DNA from: a virus
DNA: 26,201 nucleotides
IMG/VR virus record: IMGVR_UViG_3300041407_000285
Coordinates: 1-26,201 of that record
Direction: 5' to 3' (one strand)
Within the stretch, counting starts at the first letter, position 1. Every line of letters starts with the position of its first letter. Of the stretch, positions 11,419 through 25,730 are shown in pieces. The notes under the pieces were generated by a model, which was not told where the DNA came from, did not search any database, and was given only the letters and a program-made list of their open reading frames with translations. The translations under genes were made by a program, and so were the position numbers.

Positions 11419-12264
11419 ATGGCCTACATGGAACAGCTGCAGGCGGGCCTGAAAAATCTGGCGGCGGCGGGGGAGACCGGGCGCCGTAGCCTGGACGGCA
11501 TGATGGGGCCGGTCAACGGCGCGATCAGTGAAATCAGCGGCGCGGCCTCGGAGCTGGAAGGCTTGCCAATCGTGGGCCCGGCGGTCAGTCAGAAACTGCA
11601 ACGGGTCATGCGCGGCGTGAATGCCGCTCAGGCCAAAGTGGGGCAGGTGGTGGCCACGTACAACAAGGCCACGCGGGCTGTGTCACAAATCGATGAGCGC
11701 ATGGGGCAGCTGAAAGAGCAGGCCGCCCGGGCGTCCTCCGCGATCAACAAGATCGCCGGCAAGGTCAGCCCCTCGCTGGCCAACATCGTGCCCACCGGTT
11801 CGTTGGCCGGCGATGCCACGCCGTTGCCGGAGGCGGTCACGCCGTTTCCGCACTTGCTGATCATCCAGCCGCAGGATCCGAAGGCGCAGCCGTACTACTT
11901 CAACCTGGACACCGCCGCCTTCGACGAACTGCGGCGCTCGACGGAGTTTCGCTGGGCATCCCAGGAACGCTTGAGCCGGCGACCGGCACAGCAAGCGGTG
12001 GGCATGGGCGAAGAGAAGATCACCCTCAAGGGCGCGATCTTTCCCGGGTTCAAGGGCGGGCTCAAACAACTGGATACCTTGCGCAGCCTCGGTGCCCAGT
12101 TGAAACCCCTGACCCTGACCACCGGTTATGGCGACGTGCTGGGCACCTGGTGCCTGAAGAACGTCGAAGAAGAACAGAGCGCGCTGCTGCAGGGCGGGAT
12201 CCCGCGCAAGCAGGCGTTCACCTTGGAGTTTGTGCGCTATGGCGACGACCTGCAGAACGTCTGA
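11419..12264 (+). CDS. U: tail protein U with long N-terminal extension
   Basis: This is a 281-residue protein. The C-terminal about 140 residues match P2 gpU (PHLLIIQPQDPKAQPYYFNLDTAAFDEL, then EEKITLKGAIFPGFKGG, then GYGDVLGTWCLKNVEEEQS, ending ARKQAFTLEFVRYGDD-like). P2 gpU is only about 159 residues, so the first about 140 residues are extra. That extension is helical and low in aromatic residues, with a KLQRVMRGVNAAQAKVGQVVATY coiled-coil-like run. GpU acts in tail completion or tube-end assembly. A GAGGAGG site precedes the start. The gene overlaps X by 26 bases. Confidence 0.9.
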   Translation: MAYMEQLQAGLKNLAAAGETGRRSLDGMMGPVNGAISEISGAASELEGLPIVGPAVSQKLQRVMRGVNAAQAKVGQVVATYNKATRAVSQIDERMGQLKEQAARASSAINKIAGKVSPSLANIVPTGSLAGDATPLPEAVTPFPHLLIIQPQDPKAQPYYFNLDTAAFDELRRSTEFRWASQERLSRRPAQQAVGMGEEKITLKGAIFPGFKGGLKQLDTLRSLGAQLKPLTLTTGYGDVLGTWCLKNVEEEQSALLQGGIPRKQAFTLEFVRYGDDLQNV

Positions 12265-12445
12265 CGGGGATCTGCTCGATACCCTGTGTTACCACGCTTA
12301 CGGCCACATCGGCGGTACCGTCGAGGCGGTGCTGGATGCCAATCAGGGGTTGGCCGATCAGCCGCAACCGTACCGGGCCGGTATTGTAATTGTGTTGCCG
12401 GATCTGCCGGCCCCCACCGATGAGGTGGTGATGTTGTGGGGGTAA
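12239..12445 (+). CDS. X: tail protein X (LysM-like, P2 gpX)
   Basis: This 68-residue protein closely fits P2 gpX (67 residues), a small LysM-like tail protein. It contains GDLLDTLCYHAYG near the start, then VEAVLDANQGLADQPQPYRAGIVIVLPDLPAPTDE, which is the family's complete pattern. I chose the ATG at 12239, inside the end of U. In P2 the X gene lies far from U, next to lysis genes; here it follows U, as in many Pseudomonas tailocins and prophages. A cassette without phage-core genes follows before D. Confidence 0.9.
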   Translation: MATTCRTSDGDLLDTLCYHAYGHIGGTVEAVLDANQGLADQPQPYRAGIVIVLPDLPAPTDEVVMLWG

Positions 12446-12512
12446 TGCTCACGACCATGCATCGCGCTGATGACATTTTTTTGGTTCTTCACGGATTGCC
12501 GGGGAAGTCGTT

Positions 12513-12525
12513 CTTGATCTTCAAG
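12513..12525. promoter_or_regulatory. small dyad in the leader of unit A
   Basis: The sequence CTTGATCTTCAAG is a 5-bp inverted repeat around TCT. It is conserved exactly in unit B at 13374-13386, although sequence a few bases downstream is not. It could be an operator or a structured RNA element. Conservation in only two copies is weak evidence. Confidence 0.3.
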
Positions 12526-12602
12526 CAACCACCGGCCCGCGACCCTTGCACCGACATAGAGCCTTACATGTTTTCCAGGGCATGCGTGTCGCAAAAAAGT
12601 AG

Positions 12603-12631
12603 TTGTGAGCGTTTGCAGATTGTGCTTTAAG
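12603..12631 (+). promoter_or_regulatory. sigma-70-like promoter of moron gene A
   Basis: TTGTGA at 12603 and TTTAAG at 12626 are separated by 17 bases. The same arrangement occurs in unit B (TTGCAA and TTTAAG). The start codon is about 104 bases further on, leaving a structured leader. The match to consensus is moderate, so the main support is conservation of spacing in both copies. Confidence 0.4.
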
Positions 12632-12665
12632 GGATGACCGCGAGCCGAAGGGTTTGTGGCGTGCT

Positions 12666-12703
12666 CCTGGAAGGTGCGCTGTTCGAGTGAGGCTGTCTCC
12701 AGG
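12666..12703 (+). promoter_or_regulatory. conserved leader stem in unit A
   Basis: CCTGGA at 12666-12671 pairs with TCCAGG at 12698-12703, and a short TTTTCGAAAA palindrome follows directly before the ribosome site AAAGGA. The block is almost unchanged in unit B (about 13526-13562), more so than the sequences around the promoter. This points to a role in RNA structure or translation control. The reading frame of the gene is also open through this block in both copies, so an N-terminally extended protein cannot be excluded. Confidence 0.4.
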
Positions 12704-12734
12704 TCTTTTCGAAAAAACTAAAAGGATTTTAGAT

Positions 12735-13286
12735 ATGACGTCTCTTCAAGACATAAAACCTGAGCAGATCGATGCGCTCAACAAGCAATCACAGGCTGCC
12801 TTTGACGCACAAATCAAGCGCCAGCAAGAGGTTGCCAGTGCGAAGCCGGCGCTAAAAGAGGTCCTCGATCAGAAGGTGCACCCGCAATCGTTGTGTGGAT
12901 GCGGATGCCAACAGACCATTTGCGGTTTCTTCACCTTCGAAGGTTGCGGTTGCGGTTGTTATCCTCAGTCCGAAACCATCCAGATTAGTTCGTCACTCGG
13001 CAATATCGAACCACAAGGAGTCGGAGTGAAGTTCGTCGGTCAGGTGACAGGTAGTGGTACCAACATTAACATTTCCCCCGGTGTCTACCTGCAGGGCATC
13101 GTGCCTGATGCTGAGAACCTCATCGGTATCCCGTTGACGCTGCAATTGTCGATTAATTCAGGTTCGCTCATCCTGTACCTTTTTGAAGGGCCGCGTCTGC
13201 TGACTGCGCTGGTTCCGCAATATGGCGCGAACATTAGCGGGGAGTTCTCCGGCAGTGGGACCGGCATATTCAACCTGGGGTTGTAG
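12735..13286 (+). CDS. Cys-cluster moron protein, copy A, unknown function
   Basis: This 183-residue protein is not one I recognise. Residues 1-50 are charged and probably helical, with an ALNKQSQAAFDAQIKRQQEV core. Residues 54-75 hold seven cysteines in a symmetric layout: CGCGC (54, 56, 58), a lone Cys63, then CGCGC (71, 73, 75). This could bind metal or form disulfides. The rest looks like short beta strands with Gly/Ser turns (VGQVTGSGTNINIS; ISGEFSGSGTGIF). There is no signal peptide, lipobox or membrane helix, and no catalytic motif. The ATG at 12735 has the site AAAGGA upstream. It lies between tail genes but is not part of the P2 tail set; a tail-decorating or host-altering moron role is inference. 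Confidence 0.8.
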   Translation: MTSLQDIKPEQIDALNKQSQAAFDAQIKRQQEVASAKPALKEVLDQKVHPQSLCGCGCQQTICGFFTFEGCGCGCYPQSETIQISSSLGNIEPQGVGVKFVGQVTGSGTNINISPGVYLQGIVPDAENLIGIPLTLQLSINSGSLILYLFEGPRLLTALVPQYGANISGEFSGSGTGIFNLGL

Positions 13287-13321
13287 TCGACCAGGAGTAA
13301 TCAGCTCGATGCCGGGCAAGA

Positions 13322-13348
13322 AAGCCCTAGCCTCAACTGCTAGGGCTT
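13322..13348 (+). terminator. terminator stem of unit A lacking its T tract
   Basis: A perfect 10-bp stem (AAGCCCTAGC and GCTAGGGCTT around CTCAACT) closes unit A, but it is followed by CTCACGG instead of Ts. The same stem in unit B has nine Ts. The duplication junction appears to have removed the tract, so transcripts of A may run into B. Confidence 0.65.
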
Positions 13349-13461
13349 CTCACGGATTGCCGGGAAAGTCGTTCTTGATCTTCAAGCACACACCGGGCCG
13401 TTAGCCTTGTACCGACATAGGGCCTGACATTTCCAAGGCATGAGTGCCACCATCAAAGTAG

Positions 13462-13490
13462 TTGCAAGCGTTTGCAGATTGTGTTTTAAG
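13462..13490 (+). promoter_or_regulatory. sigma-70-like promoter of moron gene B
   Basis: TTGCAA at 13462 and TTTAAG at 13485 are separated by 17 bases and correspond position by position to the promoter-like pair of unit A. Both boxes agree with consensus at four of six bases. The start codon lies about 104 bases downstream. Confidence 0.4.
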
Positions 13491-13593
13491 AGATAGCCGC
13501 GAGCCGAAGGGTTCGTGGTGTGCTCCTGGAAGGTGCGCTGTTCGAGTGAGGCTGTCTCCAGGTCTTTTCGAAAAAACAAAAAGGATTTTAGAC

Positions 13594-14157
13594 ATGACAT
13601 CTTTTCAAGATATAAAACCTGAGCAAGTCGATGCGCTCAAAAAGCAATCGCAAGCTGCCTTTGACGCACAAATCAAGCGCCAGCAAGAGGTTGCTAGTGC
13701 GAAGCCGGCGCTAAAAGAGGTCCTCGATCAGAAGGTGCACCCGCAATCGTTGTGTGGATGCGGATGCCAGCAGAACATTTGCGGCTACTTCTCGTTCGAA
13801 GGTTGCGGTTGCGGTTGCTATAATCAGACCGAAACCATCCAGATTAGTGCATCACCCGCCGATATCGGACCAAATGCTCCTCAGCAAGGAACCCGAGTGC
13901 GGTTTGTCGGCCAGGCGACAGGTACGGGTACCAATATCAATATTTCCAGTCTCTATCTACAGGGCACCGTCCCTGATGCTGAGAACCTCATCGGCGTCCC
14001 GTTGACGCTGCAATTGTCGATTAGTCCAGGTTCGCTCACTCTCTACCTTTTTGAAGGGCCGCGCCTGCTGGCCGCACTGGTCCATCCAGCGCAGTATGCC
14101 GGGAACATTAGTGGGCAGTTCTCCGGCAGTGGGACCGGCTATTTCCAGCCGGCGTGA
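13594..14157 (+). CDS. Cys-cluster moron protein, copy B, unknown function
   Basis: This 187-residue paralogue of copy A starts at ATG 13594 after AAAGGA. Over the first 85 residues I count eight differences from A, all mild, and all seven cysteines are kept. The following 100 residues differ more, with an inserted PNAPQQG-like turn and a changed C-terminus, but the ends of the strands (VRFVGQATGTGTNIN; NLIGVPLTLQLS; ISGQFSGSGTGYF) are conserved. The pattern, a fixed N-terminal/Cys module with a varying beta module, suggests that the first part docks or binds a cofactor and the second part faces a variable partner. That is inference. Its own complete terminator follows. Confidence 0.8.
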   Translation: MTSFQDIKPEQVDALKKQSQAAFDAQIKRQQEVASAKPALKEVLDQKVHPQSLCGCGCQQNICGYFSFEGCGCGCYNQTETIQISASPADIGPNAPQQGTRVRFVGQATGTGTNINISSLYLQGTVPDAENLIGVPLTLQLSISPGSLTLYLFEGPRLLAALVHPAQYAGNISGQFSGSGTGYFQPA

Positions 14158-14197
14158 TGTAGTCGACCAGAAGTAAACAGCCCGACGCCGGGCAAGA

Positions 14198-14231
14198 AAG
14201 CCCTAGCCTCAAATGCTAGGGCTTTTTTTTT
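14198..14231 (+). terminator. intrinsic terminator of unit B
   Basis: A 10-bp perfect stem (AAGCCCTAGC at 14198-14207 and GCTAGGGCTT at 14215-14224) with a seven-base loop runs into nine Ts. This is a strong rho-independent terminator. Confidence 0.9.
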
Positions 14232-14267
14232 GGTTCTTTCCCGATAGTCCGTGAAGAGCCTTTTTTT
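14232..14267 (+). terminator. second stacked hairpin after the cassette
   Basis: GGTTCTT at 14232 pairs with AAGAGCC at 14254-14260 (one G-U pair) and is followed by seven Ts. The half-sequence GGTTCTTCACGGA also occurs, preceded by Ts, at the left edge of the cassette. The stem is weaker than its neighbours. Confidence 0.4.
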
Positions 14268-14292
14268 GCCCGCCCTGTGCGGGCTTTCTTTT
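14268..14292 (+). terminator. GCCCGC/GCGGGC hairpin directly before D
   Basis: GCCCGC (14268-14273) and GCGGGC (14279-14284) form a six-bp stem with a five-base loop followed by TTTCTTTT. It has the same stem sequence as the hairpin after V. It lies only 11 bases before the D start, so it probably belongs to the original X-D junction rather than to the cassette. Confidence 0.65.
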
Positions 14293-14302
14293 GGACAGAA
14301 CA

Positions 14303-15352
14303 ATGACCCCAGCCTTTCGCATCGTCGCCGACGGTGCCGACATCACGACGCTGATCAATGATCGGCTGCTGCAACTGAAAACCACCGATAAGACGGGCAT
14401 GGAGTCCGACGAGTTCGAGCTGCGCATCGATGACCGCGACGGTGCCGTGGCATTGCCGCCGCGCGGGGCCGGCATCGAGATCTACATGGGTTACGCCGGA
14501 ACCTCATTGACCCGCATCGGGCGCTACGTCGTCGATGATGTGGATTTCTCCGGGCCGCCGGACACCCTGGTGATTACCGGCAAGGCCAGCGACATGCGTG
14601 GCAGCGGCAAGACCACCCGTAGCGGCAGCTGGGAAGACGTGCCCTTGTCGCGCATCGTCGCCGATGTCGCCGCGCGTAACGGTTGGCAAGCGGTGTGCCC
14701 AGTACAGACCAAGGTGCCCCGGGCCGATCAGCTCAACGAGTCGGATTTCAACTTTATCACCCGCCTGGCCAAGCAGTACGACTGCACGGCCAAGGTGGCC
14801 GATGGCAAATTGCTGGTGATGCCTCGGCAGGCCGGGCAGAGCGCCTCGGGCAAGGCCTTTGGCGTGTTTGTGCTTCATCGCCGTGACGTCAGCCGCTTTC
14901 GGTTCCGACTGGGTGATCGCAACAGCCACAAGGCGGTTTCGACCAAGCACCAGGACAAGAAAAACGGAAAGCTCGCCGTGGTCACCCTGGACAACGACGA
15001 TTCCCCCGACGGCCTGCCGCCGGTGCACACCGACCGTCACATCTACCCCAACAAGTCGGCGGCCGAACAAGCGGCCAAGGCGCGGCTGGCGGCCTTCAAC
15101 CGGTCGACGGCGGGTGTTCGTCTGGAAATGCCTGGGCGCACCGACCTGTTTGCCGAGCGAACGATCGATGCCCAGGGCTTCAAGGTCGGTTTCGATGGCG
15201 AGTACCTGGTGGACTCGGTGGAGCAGGTGTACACCCAGTCCGGCTGGAGCACGACTGTCGAGTGCAACGGCGGCAAGCAGGGCAAGGCGAAAGCCAAAGG
15301 CAAAAAGAAAAAGTCGGCGAAGGATCTGAAGGTCGTTCAGCTCAAGCAGTAG
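14303..15352 (+). CDS. D: late control / baseplate hub protein D
   Basis: This 349-residue protein is of the P2 gpD family, a baseplate hub subunit related to T4 gp27 and VgrG that holds the spike. The start at ATG 14303 follows GGACAG and gives the usual opening TPAFRIVADGADITTLINDRLLQLKTTDKTG. Further family segments are DEFELRIDDRDGAVALPPRGAGIEIYMGY, GRYVVDDVDFSGPPDTLVITGKASDM and DFNFITRLAKQYDCTAKV. The C-terminus is a Lys-rich tail (KGKAKAKGKKKKSAKDLK), which is an unusually basic end. P2 D is about 387 residues. The endolysin follows after 33 bases. Confidence 0.93.
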   Translation: MTPAFRIVADGADITTLINDRLLQLKTTDKTGMESDEFELRIDDRDGAVALPPRGAGIEIYMGYAGTSLTRIGRYVVDDVDFSGPPDTLVITGKASDMRGSGKTTRSGSWEDVPLSRIVADVAARNGWQAVCPVQTKVPRADQLNESDFNFITRLAKQYDCTAKVADGKLLVMPRQAGQSASGKAFGVFVLHRRDVSRFRFRLGDRNSHKAVSTKHQDKKNGKLAVVTLDNDDSPDGLPPVHTDRHIYPNKSAAEQAAKARLAAFNRSTAGVRLEMPGRTDLFAERTIDAQGFKVGFDGEYLVDSVEQVYTQSGWSTTVECNGGKQGKAKAKGKKKKSAKDLKVVQLKQ

Positions 15353-16644: not shown

Positions 16645-18912
16645 TTAGGGTCTGGCAGTTTGACGGCTTCCGTCCAGTTCAATACTGCCAATCTGCAAGA
16701 GCTCGCTGGCTTGAAGGAGGCTAACGGCTTTACTGAAATAAAAGCCCTGCGCCGTGATAGGCGAGCCTGTAGAGATCAATGAGTCGCGTTGTTCTTGAGT
16801 TTCCACGCCTTCGGCGATCACCCCAATCCCCATTTCACCGGCGAAGTTGATGATCGCGCGTAGGGTTGTGGCGCTGGCCGGGTCGCGAATGGCGTCGTCG
16901 ATGAAGTTCTGGGCGATCTTGATGTGGTTGACCTTATAGGTCTTGAGGTAGTCGAATGACGAGTATTCGGTGCCGAAGTCGGCGATGGCGACTTTCACCC
17001 CCAGCGCGCACAAACGCGGCAGCACATCGTTGTGGCTCCACTTGGTCTGCGCCAGGGTCGCTTCGGTGACGTCGAACCGCAGATCCCAGGGACAAATGTT
17101 CCAGTGTACGGTGGTGCGCAGCACGTCATAAATGAGGTCCGGGCCGCTTTTGAGCTGGGCCAGGGACAGGTTGATCGCGATCACCGGCGGCGCCATGTCC
17201 CGGTCCCGCCACTGCCGCATCTGCTGGCAGGCCCGGTCCAGCAACCAATGCCCCAGGGCAATGATGGCGCCGGTTTTTTCCGCGGCGGGCAGGAAGGTGT
17301 CAGCATTCAGCAGCCCCCGCTGAGGGTGGTTCCAGCGCACTTGGGCCTCCATACCCAGAATCCTGCCTGAACTCAGGTCCACCTCGGGCAGGTAGTGCAA
17401 TTCGAGTTCGTTCCGCTCGATGGCCAATTTCAACTCGTTGGCGATAGTCAACCGGTCAAGCACTTCCTGATTGATCTCCTCGGAATGAAAGTTGTATTGG
17501 TTGCCGCCCTGATCCTTGGAGCGGTACAGCGCTATGTCGGCCTGGTCCAGCAGGCTGTCGGCACTGACGCTGCTGCTGGTATAGGTGCTAATGCCGATGC
17601 TGACCGAGTTGCGCAGGTTGTTGCCGTCGAGCGCATAGGGATGCACCAATGTCTCGCGAACCTTGGCGGCCAGGGTCGCCGCCTGGGTCGGGTCGCTGAC
17701 ATCGAGCTGAAGAATCGTGAATTCGTCACCGCCCATGCGTGCCACCACGTCGTTTTCTCGCACACAAGCCTTGATGCGTCGGGCAACCTCCTGCAGCAGC
17801 AAATCCCCCACTGTGTGGCCAAAGCTGTCGTTGATCCGTTTGAAGTGATCCAGGTCCAGAAAGATAACCGCAAACCCCGTCGCGCCACGGCGGGCGGCGG
17901 CGAAGGCTTGATGCAGACGCTCATTGAGTGTCGCGCGATTGGCCATTCCGGTCAGCGCGTCGGTGCGTGCCTGCTGGGTGATGTGCTCTTCGGCCTGCTT
18001 GCGTTCGGTGATGTCGATAATGATCCCTTCCACCTCGAGCAAACGCCCGTCGTCATCGCGTACCGGCACATAGCGATTTTCCACCCAGCGCCACAGGCCA
18101 TCACCGGTACGCAGGCGGAACTCGATGGAGGCGCCGACAGCATGCCGGTCCAGGACCTGGGCCATGGCGGCGTCGAGTTTTTCCAGGTCTTCGGGATGAA
18201 TCAGCTCCCGGGCCCAGTTGGCAGATGCCACCAGATTGGCCGCGACATGACCGAACTTGGTGATGTTGTGAGAGATATACGTCAAGGGGAACGACGGCTC
18301 CCCAAGCAGCCGATACAGAATGGTCGGGCTGTTCTGCACGATGATGTTAGCGTCGAAAAGTTCGCGGGTCCTTTCTTCGACAGCCTGTTCCAGCAGGTTC
18401 ATTTTAAGGGTGGCGTCTTCGGCTATTTGCCATTTGACCGTCAGCGCACAGGCCAGTTGACGGATCTCGATGGCATCGAAAGGCTTTTTCAGGATCAGCA
18501 GGCGATCACCCAGTTCCAGGCGTTCGGCGATGTTTTCCCAGGAGTGATCTGAATACGCGGTGCAGAGTACGACTTGCAACTTGGGGTCGACCTGCCAGAG
18601 CCGTTCGATGGTTTCCAGGCCGTCCCAGCCGGGGGGCATGCGCATGTCGATGAAGGCCATGGCATAGGGTAGATCCTTGACCAAAGCTGCTTCGACCTTG
18701 TCCAAGGCTTCGAGGCCCTGAAAGGCGGAGTCGAGTTCAAAGACTTGCACCGCAGCGGCTGGAGTGCTGCCAAACAGGGCTTCTTCAGCAGACGCCCAGC
18801 CATTTTCGGGACTCGCTGCCGGGCCGAGAGTCTTGCGGAAATCGTCATGAATTGACCGCATGTCGTCCACGATCAAGATGCGCCGATTGACGCAAGTTAC
18901 CAAGCTGCTCAT
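16645..18912 (-). CDS. REC-PAS-GGDEF-EAL cyclic-di-GMP signalling protein with degenerate EAL
   Basis: This 755-residue cytoplasmic protein has a receiver domain (1-160; acidic pocket at Asp16/Asp17, phospho-acceptor Asp89, Thr118, Lys143), a short coiled coil, a PAS domain (about 190-305) ending in DITERKQAEE, a GGDEF domain (about 315-475) and an EAL domain (490-745). GGDEF is intact at 394-398, with an RxxD inhibitory site at 385-388, so diguanylate cyclase activity is expected. In EAL the motif is EAQ (522-524), the DDFG motif is ADFG (644-647), and the KID Asp is Ala667. Glu617, Glu701 and Gln722 remain. Loss of two metal Asp residues suggests no phosphodiesterase activity. No sensor kinase is adjacent. 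Confidence 0.92.
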   Translation of the reverse strand: MSSLVTCVNRRILIVDDMRSIHDDFRKTLGPAASPENGWASAEEALFGSTPAAAVQVFELDSAFQGLEALDKVEAALVKDLPYAMAFIDMRMPPGWDGLETIERLWQVDPKLQVVLCTAYSDHSWENIAERLELGDRLLILKKPFDAIEIRQLACALTVKWQIAEDATLKMNLLEQAVEERTRELFDANIIVQNSPTILYRLLGEPSFPLTYISHNITKFGHVAANLVASANWARELIHPEDLEKLDAAMAQVLDRHAVGASIEFRLRTGDGLWRWVENRYVPVRDDDGRLLEVEGIIIDITERKQAEEHITQQARTDALTGMANRATLNERLHQAFAAARRGATGFAVIFLDLDHFKRINDSFGHTVGDLLLQEVARRIKACVRENDVVARMGGDEFTILQLDVSDPTQAATLAAKVRETLVHPYALDGNNLRNSVSIGISTYTSSSVSADSLLDQADIALYRSKDQGGNQYNFHSEEINQEVLDRLTIANELKLAIERNELELHYLPEVDLSSGRILGMEAQVRWNHPQRGLLNADTFLPAAEKTGAIIALGHWLLDRACQQMRQWRDRDMAPPVIAINLSLAQLKSGPDLIYDVLRTTVHWNICPWDLRFDVTEATLAQTKWSHNDVLPRLCALGVKVAIADFGTEYSSFDYLKTYKVNHIKIAQNFIDDAIRDPASATTLRAIINFAGEMGIGVIAEGVETQEQRDSLISTGSPITAQGFYFSKAVSLLQASELLQIGSIELDGSRQTARP

Positions 18913-19165
18913 TCGGCCACTCCAATTAAGTTCTGGATATAAAGAAATGAATACATACAGGTTCCATCCTTAGTGGCCATTAATCCCAACGTAAGCATAG
19001 CTCAACGAATTCACTTCGACGGCAAAGTAGTGACTATTGAGTAAAGAGCGAAGCAACTGGTAAATCCAATATTGAAGGCTAGATTCACATTTAAGTCAGA
19101 AGTGAGCATTGAATCTTGTGCACTTAACTAAACTCTCGGTGATTCATGGAGTGAGGGTGGTGCCG

Positions 19166-19300
19166 ATGCGGTTCGGGGTTTTGCAATCGGAAATCGTGAT
19201 CGTCGAGGGCAAAGCGCCACTGCTGAAGCCTTAGCGCTTGCGCCCGTTAAAAATTCATCGAGACGGTTCGGTATATAAATACTGGTTGGATGATCAGTAA
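19166..19300 (+). pseudogene. possible coding relic with one in-frame stop
   Basis: From the ATG at 19166 the frame reads 22 codons (start MRFGVLQSEIVIVEGKAPLL) to a TAG at 19232-19234. It then continues in the same frame for 21 more codons (RLRPLKIHRDGSVYKYWLDD core) to TAA at 19298. Both parts have protein-like composition. I do not recognise the family, and chance is quite possible. Confidence 0.25.
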
Positions 19301-19555
19301 TCGAGGCGCGAGTATTCTGGCGAGGGTAGTCGATGAGCTGCAGAGTTTGGGGAGAGGGCGAGCGAGGTGACGGTTCAGAAAAGCAGTATTCGCTGGATCA
19401 AGCTTTCCGTGCACTTTTGTTCAGGTCAACGCTCAAAATAGTTATGCGCATCACGTCCAGCGAAGCGGGAGGCGCATACGCCTTATAAGATGAACATCGA
19501 ACAATACTGCCTGCAATGCGACGTGGCCTCGTTGCTGGATGTGCCACCCCACTCC

Positions 19556-19654
19556 CTACACGAATTCCCACGTAATGTCGGGGGAGGCTATATACATCCG
19601 TACCGGATTATCCCATTTCTTGAAAATGATTTTTAGCATCCCACTCTCGTTCAT
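19556..19654 (-). pseudogene. internally deleted copy of the 78-aa gene next door
   Basis: This short frame encodes 32 residues. It begins MNESGMLKI, passes through PVRMYIASP and ends DITWEFV. The neighbour at 19748-19984 begins MSEYRMLKI, has PMELFIAAP and ends DVTWEFV. The middle 45 or so residues are missing, while start, stop and flanking sequence are retained. It is best read as a paralogue that lost its centre. Whether the 32-residue peptide is made is unknown. Confidence 0.55.
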
Positions 19655-19717
19655 CCTTGTGCCCCTTTGACTCACTGTCTGATATCACCAATGGCATGCA
19701 GCCTGGCATTCATGCAC

Positions 19718-19745
19718 CAGGCCCTCCGAACAAGGGCCCGTTTTG
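19718..19745 (+). terminator. weak terminator-like hairpin
   Basis: GGCCCT and AGGGCC form a six-bp stem around CCGAACA, followed by CGTTTTG. It has only four Ts and no obvious upstream + strand gene, so its role is doubtful. Confidence 0.3.
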
Positions 19746-19747
19746 CT

Positions 19748-19984
19748 CTATACGAATTCCCATGTGACGTCGGTTATACCTAACGCTGCCGCCTGCGGAC
19801 GCAGCTGGTCTGTCCCGATCGCTGTCAAATCAATGTCAACGTTCTTCTGGTTTTCATACTGTCTAAGAATATTGAATAGCGCAGCGTACTCATCTGGTCT
19901 CGAATACAACGGCGCGGCGATAAACAACTCCATCGGATAACCAAGCTCGTTATAGCTGATTTTTAACATCCTGTACTCGCTCAT
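19748..19984 (-). CDS. small conserved hypothetical protein, 78 aa
   Basis: The start is the ATG at 19984, behind AAAGAGG on the minus strand; the longer frame upstream is rejected because it has low-quality sequence and no ribosome site. The protein is a small alpha/beta unit: strand MLKISYNELGYPMELFIAAPLYS, helix EYAALFNILRQYENQK, then strand DIDLTAIGTDQLRPQAAALGITDVTWEFV. There is no signal peptide or membrane segment. I do not recognise a function. A deleted relative stands about 100 bases downstream, which shows local duplication. Confidence 0.65.
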   Translation of the reverse strand: MSEYRMLKISYNELGYPMELFIAAPLYSRPDEYAALFNILRQYENQKNVDIDLTAIGTDQLRPQAAALGITDVTWEFV

Positions 19985-20158
19985 TGCGATGCCTCTTTGG
20001 GGGGCTGTCCGATATAGAAAACCATAGCAGCTCGATCCAAATACTCCGCGTTGGAAAAAATAAACACTATGGAAATTACTTATGCCCTTACCACCTAGGG
20101 ACCTCACGTTTTTATTCGTGAGTGGACCAATCGGTGGGCGAAGCCTGTGCCCATGTAA

Positions 20159-20393
20159 GCGCAGACTCTGCTGGTGCATGAACATCGCCGATGTCCCAGT
20201 CGTGATCGATGCAGGTATAAAGCTGGTGATCACCGGCTATTCGCATAAGCCACGCATAGAGTGGCGCGGCGAACAGTTATATCTCAATCCCGGCAGCGCG
20301 GGACGGCGGCGCTTCAAGCTGCCGGTGACGCTGATTCTGCTTGAGGTGCTTGAGACCTCAATTGAGCCGCATCTGGTCTCGCTACTGGAATGA
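20159..20393 (+). pseudogene. 3' fragment of a YfcE-like metallophosphoesterase
   Basis: From about 20159 one frame reads AQTLLVHE; the next frame then reads IADVP, followed by GIKLVITGYSHKPRIEWRG and QLYLNPGSAGRRRFKLPV. This is the C-terminal third of the YfcE/MJ0936 phosphodiesterase family, ending with the family-typical NPGSAGRRRFKLP. A frameshift separates the two parts, the N-terminal metal sites are missing, and the GHSH metal motif reads GYSH. It cannot be an active enzyme. Its end overlaps the end of the LysR gene by 12 bases. Confidence 0.8.
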
Positions 20394-21299
20394 TCCTTCC
20401 CTGGACTGCTCGCGGGCCGAGCGGGCAAAGTCGATGAAGGCCTTGAGCGGCGCCGGTACATGGCGGCGGCTTGGATAGTACAGATGCAGGCCGGGGTAGT
20501 AGGGGCACCAGTTCGCCAGTACCTGGATCAGACGCCCGTCAGCCAGGTGCCCGGTGACCATGTCTTCGAACACGTAAGCCAGGCCCACGCCTTGCAGCGC
20601 CGGACCGACCATCAGGCTCACGTCGCCGAGGGTGAGTGGGCCGCTGACTTCGATTTCCTGGGTAATACCGCCGCGTTCGAACTCCCATCGGTACATCGAG
20701 CCGCTGGGGAACCGATGGCGGATACACGGCACGCCATGCAAATCCTCAGGTTTCTGTGGCGGAGCATGGCGCTCGAAGAATGACGGCGAGCCCACGACCA
20801 TCGAGCGCATGTTCGGCCCGATGGGTAGCGACACCATGTCCGCTTCCAAGCGATTGCCAAAGCGTACCCCCGCATCAAAACCGCCGGCCACTATATCGAG
20901 CAGTGCGTCGCTTTCGACGATCTCCAGGCTGATATCCGCATAGTCCTGCAAAAACTCGCTGGCAATCGGCAACAACACCAATTCGCACGCCTGCCGACCC
21001 GCGGTGATGCGCAGGTTGCCCGAGGGCTTGTCGCGAAAATTGTTGAGATCCTCCAGGGCGTCGTCGATGTCACGAAACGCCGGTTTCAGACGGGCATAGA
21101 GCCGTGCTCCGGCCTCGGTCAGCGCCACGCTGCGAGTGGTGCGGTTGAACAAACGCACGCCCAGGCGATTCTCCAGGGCGCGCAATGAATGGCTCAAGGC
21201 CGAGGGCGTGAGGCCAAGTTCCACAGCTGCACGGCTGAAATTCAGATGCTGAGCGATGCACAGGAAGATCGTTAGGTCGGAGGTGGATGGCGTTTTCAT
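20382..21299 (-). CDS. LysR-family transcriptional regulator
   Basis: This 305-residue protein has an N-terminal winged helix-turn-helix (residues about 4-62, with the family-typical FLCIAQHLNFSRAAVELGLTPSALSHSLRALENRLGVRLFNRTTRSVALTEAG). A two-lobed effector domain follows (GNLRITAGRQACELVLLPIASEFL, then PDVSLEIV-like and GFDAGVRFG). The GFDAGVRFG and LPIGPNMRSMVVGSP segments are typical of the group that controls nearby oxidoreductases. It is divergent from the short-chain dehydrogenase gene with a 129-base gap, so that gene is the likely target. The inducer is unknown. Confidence 0.93.
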   Translation of the reverse strand: MKTPSTSDLTIFLCIAQHLNFSRAAVELGLTPSALSHSLRALENRLGVRLFNRTTRSVALTEAGARLYARLKPAFRDIDDALEDLNNFRDKPSGNLRITAGRQACELVLLPIASEFLQDYADISLEIVESDALLDIVAGGFDAGVRFGNRLEADMVSLPIGPNMRSMVVGSPSFFERHAPPQKPEDLHGVPCIRHRFPSGSMYRWEFERGGITQEIEVSGPLTLGDVSLMVGPALQGVGLAYVFEDMVTGHLADGRLIQVLANWCPYYPGLHLYYPSRRHVPAPLKAFIDFARSAREQSREGSFQ

Positions 21300-21428
21300 T
21301 TATGAGTGTATTTCACAAAGTCATGCAAAATTAGTGGGATTATCACATGAGTATCACAACCTTAAAGTGGCATCAACTCATCGAGAAGGCCCTGCGTGTC
21401 GCACGGGTCGCCGACAGGAGGAGTTGAA
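21300..21428. promoter_or_regulatory. shared promoter region of the LysR/SDR divergent pair
   Basis: This 129-base gap lies between divergent start codons. The half next to the LysR gene is AT-rich and contains two close ATCACA repeats, which could be part of a LysR site. Clear -10/-35 boxes were not resolved. A strong AGGAGGAG ribosome site precedes the SDR start. Confidence 0.5.
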
Positions 21429-22259
21429 ATGCGTACTTGGTTCATTACTGGAGCTTCCCGTGGTTTTGGCACTCTGATCGCAGAACACGCCCTGCGTGCC
21501 GGCGACACCGTGATTGCCTCCGCGCGCAAACCTGAAGAGATCATCGCCAGACTGGGCGAGCATCCCAACCTCCTGGCCGTTCGTCTGGACGTTACCCGCG
21601 AGGAAGAAGCGCACCAGGCGGTGGCAGAAGGCATCAAGCGTTTCGGGCGTATCGACGTGCTGATCAACAATGCCGGTTTCGGTGTGTTGGGTGCGGTGGA
21701 AGAAACCAGTGCCAGCGAAACGGAACGGCTATTCGCCACCAACGTGTTCGGCGTACTCAACGTGACCCGCGCAGTGCTGCCGCATATGCGTCGCCAACGC
21801 AGCGGCCACGTCATCAACATCTCGTCCATCGGCGGTTATCAGGCCTATATGGGGTGGGGTGTCTACGGCTCCACCAAGTTTGCGGTGGAGGGCATTACCG
21901 AGGCCATGCATCAGGAGCTGGCGCCTCTGGGGATTCACGCAACGGTGGTCGAGCCAGGGTTCTTTCGCACCGACTTCCTAGACGAGCAGTCACTGATCAA
22001 GACCGCACTGGAGTTGCCGGACTACGAAGAAACGGTCGGTGTAATGCGTCGTTTTGCCGCTGCCGCCAATCACGCGCAGCCCGGCGATCCCGTGAAGTTT
22101 GCCGAGGCCATGTTGGCCTTGGTCAATACCCCGAAACCGCCACAGCGTCTGGCACTGGGCAGTGACACAGTAGCGCGTATCGAGGAGAAGAACCGCTTTG
22201 TCGCTGCGCAACTGGCTGAGTGGAAAGAGCTGGCTCTCTCCACTGACTTCAAAGTCTGA
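21429..22259 (+). CDS. short-chain dehydrogenase/reductase
   Basis: This 276-residue protein is a classical SDR using NAD(P)H on an unknown carbonyl or alcohol substrate. The start at ATG 21429 is fixed by AGGAGGAG. It has a cofactor motif TGASRGFG (7-14) and a structural NNAG (80-83). The active residues are Ser132 or Ser133 in NISSIGG, and Tyr146 and Lys150 in YGSTK. Arg11 after the Gly motif is compatible with NADP preference. The C-terminal half has the EPGFFRTDF loop seen in many SDRs of this group. It is probably controlled by the adjacent LysR regulator. Confidence 0.92.
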   Translation: MRTWFITGASRGFGTLIAEHALRAGDTVIASARKPEEIIARLGEHPNLLAVRLDVTREEEAHQAVAEGIKRFGRIDVLINNAGFGVLGAVEETSASETERLFATNVFGVLNVTRAVLPHMRRQRSGHVINISSIGGYQAYMGWGVYGSTKFAVEGITEAMHQELAPLGIHATVVEPGFFRTDFLDEQSLIKTALELPDYEETVGVMRRFAAAANHAQPGDPVKFAEAMLALVNTPKPPQRLALGSDTVARIEEKNRFVAAQLAEWKELALSTDFKV

Positions 22260-22765
22260 GGCGACCGCCGCAACGTTGGGTGTGAACCGCACCGATGGAA
22301 GGATCTCAGTGGTCCATAACTGGTACAGAAGAAATCTGGTAGTGCTGAGTGCCGTGGTTTAAAAAGGCTAAAGCTTCGGTAACTACAACCCATCATAAAG
22401 GTTGCCAGTTGCCACCGAACGACCTCAGCTCGATCACGTTCAGCTCTGCTAAATGGGAATGTTTTAGGGCAGATTCAGGGCCGCCATAGTCCGCAGTACG
22501 CTAAGAGCAGAGTAGAAATATACCGTGTTTGACGGTCTATAACGGTCCTTGGGGACGCTAGAAGGGGTTCGAATCCCTATCTTCGCTTTACTCGAAGGTC
22601 ATGCCAATGACCGATTCGACCCAAAGCGCAAGTAGCTGTATCCCGATAGCAGACGTTGAGAAGGCCTGTAGACTCGGCGGTGGCTAACGCGTCCGTGCTG
22701 GTGCTGGATCCTCTGTTTTCGCTAGACATTGAAGTCGGTGATTCCGCCTCTTTCAGGCGAGCCGC
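22260..22765. other. 506-bp intergenic stretch
   Basis: No gene was supported. The central part has a sequence like the 3' end of a tRNA (see next entry). The rest is mixed in composition and shows no clear hairpin or promoter. Confidence 0.5.
22561..22587 (+). other. possible tRNA 3'-end remnant / attachment site
   Basis: GGGGTTCGAATCCCT at 22564-22578 is a T-arm consensus (GTTCGAATC), followed by a possible acceptor strand TCTTCGC and a T. The five-bp stem has one G-U pair and one mismatch, and I found no matching 5' half upstream. Integrated elements often leave such partial tRNA ends, but chance cannot be excluded. Confidence 0.3.
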
Positions 22766-23278
22766 CTAGAGGGGCCAGTGTGTTCGTAGCCTGGCTAGCT
22801 CTCGCTCTAATGCACACAACTCTTTGTTGAACGCGGCCAACTCCGCAAGGCTGTATTCAAAGCATTGCTGCGCACCGGAGGGAAGTCCAATGACATTGAC
22901 GATCTTGTGACGGTGCGCCTCGACGCCCCATCGACCGTGGACCATCTGATTGCGCTGTACCCGAGCGGCATGCACACGCTCAATCCAGCGTTCATAGGCC
23001 GCACGGCGTTTGGAGCCGGCCGGTAAGCTCTCTGCGACTCGCGTCGAAAGCATTTCGAGTTTCGTATGGATGCTCTGCCCTTCGATCGAATTCGATAAGG
23101 TTTCCAATTTTATGCCCTTGTCTAACCACGCCAAACAGAGCCCTAAATTCACATCGACGCACGAGAACGCGAAGAGCATCTGTCCGAGCAACGATGCAGC
23201 CTCAGCTTGCATCGCCTCTCGACGTGCCCTTAGTTGTCCAGCCGTTTCGACCGGGTCAGGCGTTGAATTAGGTTCCAA
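22766..23278 (-). CDS. hypothetical protein with HEPN-like RNxxxH motif
   Basis: This 170-residue all-helical protein would start with TTG at 23278; an in-frame ATG at 23212 (residue 23) is the alternative. It contains RNQMVH (Arg109-His114), an Rx4H motif with Asn after Arg, as in HEPN ribonucleases and toxins, and it sits in a helix as in that family. Neighbouring helices (LLGQMLFAFSCVDVNLGLCLAWL; YERWIERVHAARVQ) suit a small HEPN bundle. No antitoxin or nucleotidyltransferase gene is visible next to it. The HEPN call rests on one motif. Confidence 0.55.
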   Translation of the reverse strand: MEPNSTPDPVETAGQLRARREAMQAEAASLLGQMLFAFSCVDVNLGLCLAWLDKGIKLETLSNSIEGQSIHTKLEMLSTRVAESLPAGSKRRAAYERWIERVHAARVQRNQMVHGRWGVEAHRHKIVNVIGLPSGAQQCFEYSLAELAAFNKELCALERELARLRTHWPL

Positions 23279-23456
23279 GGCTTTCTCGCATTTGTAGTCT
23301 GGGTGGTGCAGAGTTCAGCACATTATTTCGTAGGTCTGCTTCTGGGCCGATTGCTGCCTGTTGAGAGGGGCTGAATCGACCCAAAACTGCCATCGACGAC
23401 TCAGTTTTATGGCATATGTAGAATAGCGGTTTCCTCATTTTCAAAGGAATGATCCA

Positions 23457-23762
23457 GTGATCACTTGCCACGTCAGGTATGTAATCGATCCCTACCAGAT
23501 CCCTGCTTTCGAAAGCTATTCTCGTCATTGGATTCGTGTGGTGAACCGTATGGGAGGAAACCACCACGGCTACTTTCTACCAGCCGAAGGCGCCAACAAC
23601 ATCGCTTATTGTCTATTCAGCTTTTCCAGCCTGGCAGATTATGAGCAATACCGTAGGGAGGCCGGAGTAGATCCTGAGTGCGTTCAATTGGTGACGCAGG
23701 CTACCGAGCAAAAATTCATCCTGAGCTACGAGCGCAGTTTCCTTCGTCCCATTCTTGATTGA
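23457..23762 (+). CDS. NIPSNAP-family protein
   Basis: This 101-residue protein begins with GTG at 23457 behind AAGGA. The N-terminus ITCHVRYVIDPYQIPAFESYSRHWIRVVNRMGGNHHGYF is the NIPSNAP-type dimeric alpha/beta barrel opening, in which a strand with YxIDP is followed by the F-Y---W-------GG pattern. A second strand pair (NIAYCLFSFSSLADYEQYR) completes one ferredoxin-like unit. Bacterial members of this fold are small cytoplasmic proteins of unknown or varied role. It stands alone, on the opposite strand from both neighbours. Confidence 0.85.
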   Translation: MITCHVRYVIDPYQIPAFESYSRHWIRVVNRMGGNHHGYFLPAEGANNIAYCLFSFSSLADYEQYRREAGVDPECVQLVTQATEQKFILSYERSFLRPILD

Positions 23763-23900
23763 ACTGACGTGTTTTCGGCTGCGCGCGGGCGCGCCAAAGA
23801 GGCTGCTTTTGGCTGCTGATAGCTGCCTGCGAGGGAACCGGGCTCGTTCCCCCGAATCAACCTCGACATGACTGTCGACGGGTCTTGGGTATGCAATCGG

Positions 23901-24116
23901 TTAACCGATGTCCAATTTTTTCAATCGAGCCAAGCCTTGTTTGATATGGCCAGCGTTTTCAGCCATGGTCCACAGTGCGCCACGGACATTTCCGCCCACT
24001 TCCCGTGCCCCTTGCTCCTCAGCCAGCAGTGTCAACTCCATAATGGCCGCCTCCAATGCCTGCTGGTTTTCGTACAGCCTTTCCAGTACATCTGACAGTG
24101 AATAATCGCTTGGCAT
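23901..24116 (-). CDS. 71-aa helical hypothetical protein, copy 1
   Basis: The start is ATG at 24116 (MPSDYS), with AAAGGA upstream on the minus strand; the longer frame is an artefact. The protein is almost entirely helical: LSDVLERLYENQQALEAAIMELTLLAEEQG, then REVGGNVRGALWTMAENAGHI and KQGLARLKKLDIG. A nearly identical gene lies at 25731-25946, differing at 7 of 71 residues. No known domain, signal or membrane segment is seen. Duplication of the gene with about 30 bases of its 5' flank suggests a selected or mobile unit. The function is unknown. Confidence 0.7.
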   Translation of the reverse strand: MPSDYSLSDVLERLYENQQALEAAIMELTLLAEEQGAREVGGNVRGALWTMAENAGHIKQGLARLKKLDIG

Positions 24117-24492
24117 TGTGTCGATTCCTTTCGAGAAAGCCCAAGCATAGCAATGACAGTGACCGCTGTTGGAGCCTGGAAGAAGTTGTCGAGGCGAAAG
24201 AGTGTCCAGCTGATTTGGGAATGAGGGAGCAATGGTGAATGGGGCAAAAATGGGGCAAACCGTACGCCAAACCATGCCATTCAATGCCCACTATGCATTT
24301 GTGCAAGCAGGCAAGAATGCGCGTTATGGCCAACAAACACTGGCATCTCCCGCCAAAACCGCCACATACCCAAGCACAATCGGGGTGTGCGAGGCATTGT
24401 TGATAATTCTGTCTTGCCTAAATTTTTATATTCGAGTAAGGATTTACTAATTGAAAACTAGTTATCTCGTACTGCCTCAGGACTGACACTAC
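24117..24492. other. 376-bp intergenic stretch
   Basis: The first 40 bases are the 5' flank shared with the second 71-aa gene, including TTTCGAGAAA. The remainder becomes AT-richer toward the lipoprotein gene. No gene or RNA could be supported. Confidence 0.45.
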
Positions 24493-25341
24493 CTACTGGA
24501 CTAGTTTTGCTGCGTCGGCTGCCTTCTTCGCTGCCACCTTTGAGGCATCCAATGCTGCTTTTGCCTGCTCTGCAGCTTCTGCTGCTGCCGCATTCTTAGC
24601 ATTTGCCGCAGCTAAGTTGGCTGCATCGACCTTTATCATTGCTTGCTTTAACTCTTCATCTGCTTCTTTAGCGGCTAGTTCTGCAGCTTTCGCTACTTCA
24701 GTCTTCGACTTCGCAATGTCAGCCGGTGCTTTGGGATATTTTATTGCGTCTACAGGTGCTTCTTGTGCCGCGCCAGTGACACCAGCGGCCTCACACATTG
24801 AGGCAAGAGTGATGCTTGCATCTACTTTCGCCTGAGCGTTTTCCGCTCTAGCTGCGGATAAAATATTGGCTTTTAGTTCTCGCGCTACTTCCCTACGTTC
24901 CTGGAAATATGCTTCGTGGCTCAATGGGCTTTTATCAAAGTCTATCATCATTGAGTTAGTAACACCTGACAAACCTGACCACCCCGCAATTGCTGACTTC
25001 GCTGCTCCCCCAGCAGCCAATGATGGAGCAATTACTCCACCAGCTAGCGCGCCTATACTTCCAAGTCCCAATCTATTTTGAGCCGCTTGTCTTCCGTAAT
25101 ACTGACTGTTTTCCATTTTTTCATTACAGAACTTAACTGCGTCATAAAAATCTTGAGTCGCTGCAGCCATTAACTTGCTGTCGTCTTTCTCTGGCTTGTT
25201 ACGAGCTTTCAAATAGTTGTCGAACTTTGGGAAAATGACGGGCTCCTTGAAAATGAGATTTTTAACTGCCTTTAATTGAGGTTCGAAGATGGTGCAACCC
25301 TGCAAGACAAGAATCATAACCAAAATTAGTAACCGACTCAT
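24493..25341 (-). CDS. lipoprotein with Ala-rich C-terminal coiled coil
   Basis: This is a 282-residue protein. I chose the ATG at 25341 because GGAGG precedes it and the next residues form a type II signal: SRLLILVMILVLQGC, with the lipobox Cys at residue 16. The mature part begins TIFEPQLKAVKNLIFKEPV. The centre has a Gly/Ala stretch (SIGALAGGVIAPSLAAGGAA) that may touch membrane. The last about 75 residues are an Ala/Lys/Glu coiled coil (AELAAKEADEELKQAMIKVD; AKAALDASKVAAKKAADAAK), similar in style to TolA domain II or Lpp-like spacers. The gene is AT-richer than its surroundings. Its function is unknown, and its setting between two copies of the 71-aa gene suggests acquisition. Confidence 0.75.
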   Translation of the reverse strand: MSRLLILVMILVLQGCTIFEPQLKAVKNLIFKEPVIFPKFDNYLKARNKPEKDDSKLMAAATQDFYDAVKFCNEKMENSQYYGRQAAQNRLGLGSIGALAGGVIAPSLAAGGAAKSAIAGWSGLSGVTNSMMIDFDKSPLSHEAYFQERREVARELKANILSAARAENAQAKVDASITLASMCEAAGVTGAAQEAPVDAIKYPKAPADIAKSKTEVAKAAELAAKEADEELKQAMIKVDAANLAAANAKNAAAAEAAEQAKAALDASKVAAKKAADAAKLVQ

Positions 25342-25730
25342 TCTGAACCTCCATGTGCGAGAGTAGGCCATATGCCATCACTAAAGACCAGTTTCAGCTT
25401 TCTGGCAAGAATGTCGAAATGAAATATAAGGCGGTTGCAGGAGTTGGGTGCAAAGTAGGTGTTGGATTGAAGTGGGCAGCTCGTGCCGGTACCCATGGCC
25501 TTTTGCATCACCTCACTCATCATTTCGATCGGACATTGAAATCGAAGCGTTTACGGGGGCGATATTCGGTACCGGCCCGAAGCGACCGCAGTGGCAAACA
25601 GAACTAGCCATCGAGAACGGCAAATTCAGGCTTTTCCGTTTCTTAATTTTCCAATTCGAAACGTCCGCTCCTGGCTATAGCCGCCTGTGAAGTGGACAGA
25701 ACTGGTACCCAGAATTTACCCCGATATAAC
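25342..25730. other. 389-bp intergenic stretch
   Basis: It contains the promoter region of the lipoprotein gene. Its right end (about 25655-25715) has a CGTCCGCTCCTGGC...AGCCGCCTG phrase of the kind common in Pseudomonas intergenic DNA; a similar phrase precedes the first 71-aa copy near 23800. Open frames here lack protein-like features. Confidence 0.45.

What the first reader, a model, noticed from the sequence alone, without database searches (positions are those of the whole stretch)
12446..14302. Tandem-duplicated Cys-cluster moron between tail genes X and D
The sequence shows two ~860-bp units, each with promoter-like boxes, a structured leader, one gene and a terminator stem, placed between two conserved tail genes. 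Morons in P2-like phages commonly change the host or protect it from other phages. The encoded protein matches no family I know. Duplication with both frames intact suggests that dose or variety matters.
Basis: partly seen in the sequence, partly recalled or inferred. Interest (0 to 1): 0.75.

Follow-up and report, generated by a model that had tools for sequence, protein, structure and literature searches.

The report
Transposon-end cassette carrying Vap-fold prophage gene
Between two tail genes of a Pseudomonas prophage sits a small gene cassette, present twice, whose outer ends match those of a common insertion sequence and whose protein is predicted to have a rare barrel shape known from Rhodococcus virulence proteins, which suggests how an extra gene can be slipped into a phage without harming it.

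Summary
Two diverged units (81% protein identity) lie between tail genes X and D, each with a promoter-like pair, a covarying leader RNA and an intact ORF. Only unit 2 keeps a full terminator. "Moron" is right: 65 relatives have an empty X-D gap, and 12 more carry other inserts there.

Two things were missed. (1) The insert (12483-14260) is bounded by inverted ends that match a 1308-bp ISL3-family insertion sequence of Pseudomonas. It sits between 7-nt T tracts just before the hairpin ahead of D, with no transposase: a mobile-insertion-cassette-like element. (2) The protein has no Pfam, PHROG or NCBIfam match, but two AlphaFold models match the Rhodococcus equi Vap barrel (Z 11.2 and 13.3; next rows 5.1 and 5.5) and share its glycine pattern. 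No sequence relationship to Vap was detectable.

Promoter, leader, gene and terminator form a rare cassette (about 2% of Pseudomonas genomes) at unrelated chromosomal sites and in a second phage type; the gene also occurs in Serratia and Burkholderia. Cysteines are lost in some members. Duplication against double insertion is unresolved. Function is inferred: a cytoplasmic, possibly lipid-touching moron protein.

The parts
12230..12445 (+). tail gene X (left neighbour)
   Evidence: PF05489 E 6.5e-19
12476..12482 (.). left T7 tract, putative target-site duplication
   Evidence: autonomous copies of the insertion sequence are flanked by T8 or A8
12483..12507 (+). left terminal inverted repeat, ISL3-type end (similarity continues to 12523)
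   Evidence: 41 nt at 90% to IS right end; 73/399 Pseudomonas genomes carry this end
12603..12631 (+). promoter-like TTGTGA-17-TTTAAG, unit 1
   Evidence: spacing conserved across copies at unrelated loci
12632..12734 (+). structured leader RNA, unit 1 (hairpins ~12637-12660 and ~12666-12703)
   Evidence: R1 match 118.2 bits; covariation
12735..13286 (+). unit 1 gene, 183 aa, Vap-like barrel with Cys clusters
13318..13348 (+). unit 1 terminator stem without T tract
13350..13384 (+). internal copy of the left IS end, start of unit 2
   Evidence: 91% to IS end
13462..13490 (+). promoter-like TTGCAA-17-TTTAAG, unit 2
13491..13593 (+). structured leader RNA, unit 2
   Evidence: R1 match 121.5 bits
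13594..14157 (+). unit 2 gene, 187 aa; helix 9-44, 8-strand barrel 59-186
14194..14228 (+). unit 2 intrinsic terminator with T tract
14236..14260 (-). right terminal inverted repeat, ISL3-type end
   Evidence: 22/25 to IS end; arms 20/25 complementary
14261..14267 (.). right T7 tract, putative target-site duplication
14268..14284 (+). terminator-like hairpin before D, recurring at the empty X-D junctions inspected
14303..15352 (+). tail gene D (right neighbour)
   Evidence: PF05954 E 1.2e-15

Best explanation
It is a phage moron that arrived as a mobile-insertion-cassette-like element. SHOWN: the cassette lies between ISL3-family transposon ends with no transposase, at a T-rich site just before the hairpin ahead of tail gene D. 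The site is empty in most related phages. Each unit carries a promoter-like pair, a covarying leader RNA found only with this gene family, and an open gene; unit 2 has a complete terminator. The barrel domain is predicted to have the Vap fold. INFERRED: an ISL3 transposase acting in trans moved the cassette into the T tract, which spared the flanking tail genes. The lysogen makes the protein from the cassette's own promoter while the phage is silent. The protein has no evident signal peptide, so it stays in the cytoplasm, where the glycine-rich face of the barrel touches lipid or the inner membrane and gives the lysogen an advantage (protection from other phages, predators or stress). Likelihoods: moron 0.95; ISL3-type arrival 0.85; Vap fold 0.9; lipid or membrane contact 0.35; the particular benefit unknown.
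For: X-D survey: 65 empty, 11 with another moron, 1 with a third insert, 2 single copy, 2 double (window, L005). IS ends: left end 41 nt at 90% and right end 26 nt at 88% to a 1308-bp element with DDE_Tnp_ISL3 (E 1.2e-67) and NF033550 ISL3 transposase; end matches 22-25 of 25 against mostly 13-16 in random 1-kb windows; the end is repeated in 73 of 399 Pseudomonas genomes. T7 tracts on both sides; complete IS copies sit in T8 or A8 tracts. Cassette logic: leader model R1 hits exactly the same 10 of 399 genomes as the gene, always directly upstream; 8 leader pairs have changes on both sides against 3.5 in shuffles. Fold: pLDDT 81 and pTM 0.80 for copy 2, VapD Z 11.2, rmsd 2.4 over 112 residues, next unrelated row 5.1; a second model from a Serratia homologue gives Z 13.3 against 5.5. 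The family keeps glycines on strand 3 (G106, G110, G112) and around strand 8 (G174, G178, G180, G182) followed by an aromatic residue; VapD clusters three invariant glycines on strand 3 and five on strand 8 (PMC4118825).
Against: Most chromosomal copies lack recognisable IS ends (L010 has only an 18/25 left end), so ISL3 movement is indicated only for the prophage lineage. The duplicated target is a homopolymer, so a duplication of exact length cannot be read. No sequence relationship to Vap proteins. A shared fold does not give a function. Some members lost most of the cysteines (L014-L017), so the clusters cannot be essential to the whole family.
Confidence: 0.7

Rival explanations
1. The two units are not a duplication. 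A second cassette inserted next to the first, probably at the T tract of a unit's terminator, and the right end of unit 1 was later lost.
For: Array order is end-unit 1-end-unit 2-end, with an internal IS end at 13350-13384. ISL3 copies sit in T or A tracts. Copy 1 is closer to chromosomal L009 (dS 0.195) than to copy 2 (dS 0.272).
Against: The AU test does not reject copy 1 and copy 2 plus L004 as one clade (p 0.31). Flanking 100-nt segments of both units are alike (85%). A 14-nt direct repeat TTTTTTTGGTTCTT at both ends could have made a duplication.
Confidence: 0.45
2. The protein protects the lysogen against other phages (superinfection exclusion or abortive defence).
For: It occurs as a moron in two unrelated prophage types: the P2-like X-D gap, and L006/L022 beside repressor-like and antitoxin-like genes with recombination genes further along. 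The B. vietnamiensis plasmid copy is near an AbiE toxin-antitoxin pair. Expression signals are self-contained.
Against: Most copies are solo chromosomal genes outside evident prophages. No defence gene is consistently adjacent. The PADLOC library was not searched.
Confidence: 0.3
3. It is directed at eukaryotes (amoebae, nematodes, insects or plants), working like Rhodococcus Vap proteins on host membranes.
For: Vap fold. Hosts are largely soil- and plant-associated Pseudomonas, with Serratia and Burkholderia.
Against: No evident signal peptide and no linked secretion gene seen. Vap-like proteins of other bacteria also lack signals and may be cytoplasmic (PMC4118825). No sequence relationship to Vap.
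Confidence: 0.15
4. It is a thiol- or metal-binding protein (CGCGC clusters, metallothionein-like).
For: LCGCGC and CGCGC motifs in most members.
Against: L014-L017, L012, L013 and L023 lost several or most cysteines while keeping the barrel. By the modelled strand order the two clusters precede strand 1 and fill the strand 1-2 turn, so they would sit at opposite ends of the barrel (inferred, coordinates not inspected).
Confidence: 0.12
5. It is a structural or assembly part of the tail.
For: Position between X and D.
Against: Absent in 65 close relatives with X and D present. The same cassette occurs outside phages. No PHROG tail family.
Confidence: 0.02

Closest known systems
Mobile insertion cassettes (MICs) and passenger-carrying ISL3 elements such as ISPpu12
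   Same: IS-type inverted ends around a passenger gene, transposase absent (MIC) and expected to be supplied in trans (PMC4133298); 8-bp target duplication listed for ISPpu12a in the same paper
   Different: Sits in a phage tail operon, at a T tract next to a terminator hairpin; the passenger is a Vap-fold gene with its own leader RNA; contains two units; transposition not shown
Rhodococcus equi Vap proteins (PF05526) and Vap-like proteins of other bacteria
   Same: Predicted eight-strand barrel with short helix between strands 4 and 5, glycine-rich strands 3 and 8, no evident signal peptide as in the non-rhodococcal Vap-like proteins, mostly single genes (PMC4118825)
   Different: No HMM or profile match; Phe instead of the terminal Trp; helical N-terminal region and Cys-Gly clusters instead of a disordered one; phage- and IS-end-borne
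Phage morons / lysogenic conversion genes
   Same: Independent promoter, inserted between phage genes, absent in relatives
   Different: The route of arrival, IS ends at a T tract, is visible

Membership tests
Mobile insertion cassette with ISL3-type ends | terminal inverted repeats matching an autonomous IS | tested here: met
   22-25 of 25 at both ends (window, L004, L005)
Mobile insertion cassette with ISL3-type ends | target-site duplication (8 bp for ISPpu12a) | tested here: inconclusive
   T7 on both sides, but homopolymer; other members imperfect
Mobile insertion cassette with ISL3-type ends | no transposase, passenger gene instead | tested here: met
   no transposase match; the two unit genes are the only plausible genes inside 12483-14260
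Mobile insertion cassette with ISL3-type ends | mobilised in trans by the cognate transposase | not testable with these tools
   needs a transposition assay
R. equi Vap family PF05526 | match to the family profile | tested here: not met
   no match of these proteins at E up to 10; hhalign to two Vap-like proteins probability 0.1
R. equi Vap family PF05526 | eight-strand barrel of Vap fold | tested here: met
   Z 11.2 and 13.3 over 112 of 113 residues, (predicted models)
R. equi Vap family PF05526 | glycine-rich C-terminal strand followed by Trp | tested here: not met
   glycines present, Phe184 in place of Trp; reference
R. equi Vap family PF05526 | membrane binding or permeabilising | not testable with these tools
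   experiment needed
Phage moron | inserted between genes that are adjacent in relatives | tested here: met
   65 empty junctions
Phage moron | own promoter and terminator | tested here: met
   conserved TTG-17-TTTAAR pair and terminator of unit 2; activity not measured
Phage moron | expressed in the lysogen | not testable with these tools
   needs RNA data
Known riboswitch or RNA family | match to Rfam | tested here: not met
   none in window or in the L011 leader

The most novel reading that the evidence does not exclude
ISL3-type mobile insertion cassettes that home to terminator T tracts are a general route by which bacterial genes become phage morons. Here they spread a previously unnamed phage- and chromosome-borne branch of the Vap fold, with its own covarying leader RNA, whose members act on membranes.
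Probability: 0.2. Interest if true: 0.8.

Novelty: new variant of a known kind. Interest (0 to 1): 0.58.

Why it matters
How morons enter phage late operons without breaking them is usually invisible; here the IS ends, the T-tract site and the empty junction are all readable. The Vap barrel was described as a novel topology, and the function of Vap-like proteins outside Rhodococcus was undetermined in 2014; a small, mobile version without an evident signal peptide in Pseudomonas would allow its basic activity to be studied away from a pathogen. The leader RNA, which tracks the gene one to one, is a new cis-element to test.

Tried and rejected
Pfam, PHROGs, NCBIfam and PDB sequence searches gave no family; a weak hit to a phage decorating protein (E 0.029) was not among the fold matches listed and was dropped. 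No protein relative in 50,697 phage records, one in plasmids. Rfam: none. Sequence proof of kinship to Vap failed: hhalign, global hhalign with column-shuffled controls (real 4.98, 17 of 100 shuffles as high), shuffled pairwise scores z -0.1 to 2.8. A scan for phage-borne PF05526-like proteins found none. Foldseek against viral models: no match at E 0.001. The other X-D occupants printed show no obvious copy of the IS end by eye. An RsmA-type reading of the leader was considered; the hairpin GGA lacks the preceding A(N), so it was not pursued.

Full report
What is there. The window is a 26,201-base IMG/VR record that holds part of a P2-like prophage: head-tail protein, spike V, J, I, fibre, sheath, tube, tape measure, U, X, D, GH19 endolysin and Rz, followed by GGDEF/EAL and LysR genes on the other strand. 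Between X (ends 12445) and D (starts 14303) are two head-to-tail units, each with one open gene (183 and 187 aa, 81% identical). Two other metagenome contigs hold the same pair.

A moron site. In the relatives fetched by gpU, plus one phage record and the earlier loci, X and D are 43-102 bp apart in 65. They are 471-506 bp apart in 11, which carry a different ~107-aa protein with a hydrophobic stretch and two Cys pairs, and 595 bp apart in one with a minus-strand ORF. The gap is about 1,000 bp in two (one copy of this gene) and about 1,860 bp in the window and L005 (two copies). A GCCCGCC..GCGGGC-type hairpin with a T tail stands before D in the empty junctions printed, and the insert lies just before it.

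The ends. The insert is bounded by GGTTCTTCACGGATTGCCGGGGAAG (12483-12507) and CTTTCCCGATAGTCCGTGAAGAGCC (14236-14260), 20 of 25 complementary, with TTTTTTT directly outside on both sides. A search of 399 Pseudomonas genomes with the left flank found its first ~48 bases, or part of them, in 73, often more than once. In L143, L146 and L147 this sequence is the end of a 1308-bp element in T8 or A8 tracts. Its 406-aa protein is an ISL3-family transposase (PF01610 E 1.2e-67; NF033550 331.8 bits against a cut-off of 180). Both cassette ends resemble the right end of that element. In 300 random 1-kb windows the best end match was mostly 13-16 of 25; a few at 20-25 come from a pool that includes loci holding the element. 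The insert has no transposase. It therefore has the anatomy of a mobile insertion cassette (term and trans-activation: PMC4133298). The 8-bp duplication of ISL3 elements is listed for ISPpu12a in the same paper, and an ISL3-associated move of other DNA with 8-bp duplication is in PMC11702846. In this sequence the duplication is a T tract, so its exact length is uncertain. Relative L050 reads GATGACACTTACTTTGCCCGCC where the window reads GATGACATTTTTTT-insert-TTTTTTTGCCCGCC.

The cassette elsewhere. Homologues occur in Pseudomonas, Serratia and Burkholderia and in a different phage type beside repressor-like genes (L006/L022). It is rare: 10 of 399 Pseudomonas genomes, 1 of 369 from the Serratia class. 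The chromosomal places are mostly unrelated to one another (for example rpoS-cassette-fdxA in L010, my reading of the neighbours' sequences; L014-L017 share one place). Terminator-side similarity extends to L009, L010, L012 and L013, but IS ends are not recognisable there except for a degenerate one in L010 directly after the T tract of the preceding terminator. So ISL3-type arrival is indicated for the prophage lineage only.

The leader. The 5' regions of Pseudomonas copies at unrelated sites share a TTGnnn-17-TTTAAR pair and about 100 nt with two hairpins. Eight pairs have changes on both sides (shuffled mean 3.5), and 87.7% of cells pair against 35-52% in slid controls. A covariance model finds the leader in the same 10 genomes as the gene and nowhere else in those 399, and directly before both window genes. 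It is not in Rfam and was not found in the Serratia and Burkholderia loci. It is a private 5' UTR of this gene, of unknown action.

The protein. No family matches. An AlphaFold model of copy 2 has an N-terminal helix (9-44) and a barrel (59-186), mean pLDDT 81, pTM 0.80. VIA-align places four R. equi Vap structures first (Z 9.8-11.2, rmsd 2.1-2.4 over 105-112 residues); the next row is Z 5.1. A second model, from the Serratia homologue at 66% identity, gives Z 11.7-13.3 against 5.5, though at lower confidence (pLDDT 74.9, pTM 0.65). Eight strands, the short helix between strands 4 and 5 and the glycines on strands 3 and 8 agree with the published VapD description. Sequence kinship could not be shown, so the claim is 'Vap fold', not 'Vap family member'. 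By the modelled strand order the Cys-Gly clusters precede strand 1 and fill the strand 1-2 turn; several relatives have lost most of them.

Duplicate or double insertion. Copy-1 genes of three contigs form one group and copy-2 genes plus the single copy of L004 another. dS between copies is 0.27, and copy 1 to chromosomal L009 is 0.195. The AU test leaves sister copies possible. Both lines show omega below 1.

How it most likely works. Steps shown: IS-type ends, T-tract site, empty sites in relatives, conserved expression signals, intact genes with omega below 1, predicted Vap fold. Steps inferred: movement by an ISL3 transposase in trans, expression in the quiet lysogen, cytoplasmic location (no hydrophobic leader), contact of the glycine-rich face with lipid, and a benefit to the lysogen. 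The benefit itself is open; protection against other phages is my first guess at about 0.3.

Noticed in passing
L059, L065, L081, L078, L062 and others, X-D gap: A second moron, ~107 aa with a hydrophobic stretch and two Cys pairs (zinc-ribbon-like), occupies the same X-D site in 11 relatives.
   Followed up: partly
L117 X-D gap: A third kind of insert: a 147-aa minus-strand ORF with a signal-like start.
   Followed up: no
L143 234-1541, L147 234-1541, L146 1508-2815: A 1308-bp ISL3-family insertion sequence lying in T8/A8 tracts, its end found whole or in part in about 18% of sampled Pseudomonas genomes.
   Followed up: partly
L138 713-1541: An 829-bp derivative with both ISL3 ends and only part of the transposase, a possible step toward cassettes.
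   Followed up: no
L008 7995-8567 (B. vietnamiensis plasmid): A homologue on a 225-kb plasmid close to an AbiE-type toxin-antitoxin pair and an integrase.
   Followed up: no
L134 and L135: Two gammaproteobacterial proteins over the PF05526 cut-off, without evident signal peptides; Vap-like proteins exist outside Rhodococcus as PMC4118825 reports.
   Followed up: partly
L007 6011-6883 (OQ658366.1): A gene in the position of gpU is annotated as an XRE family regulator, probably a misannotation.
   Followed up: no
window 16648-25371: Right third of the window holds host-like genes on the minus strand (PAS-GGDEF-EAL, LysR), so the prophage edge probably lies near 16.5 kb; no tRNA was found in the window.
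   Followed up: partly
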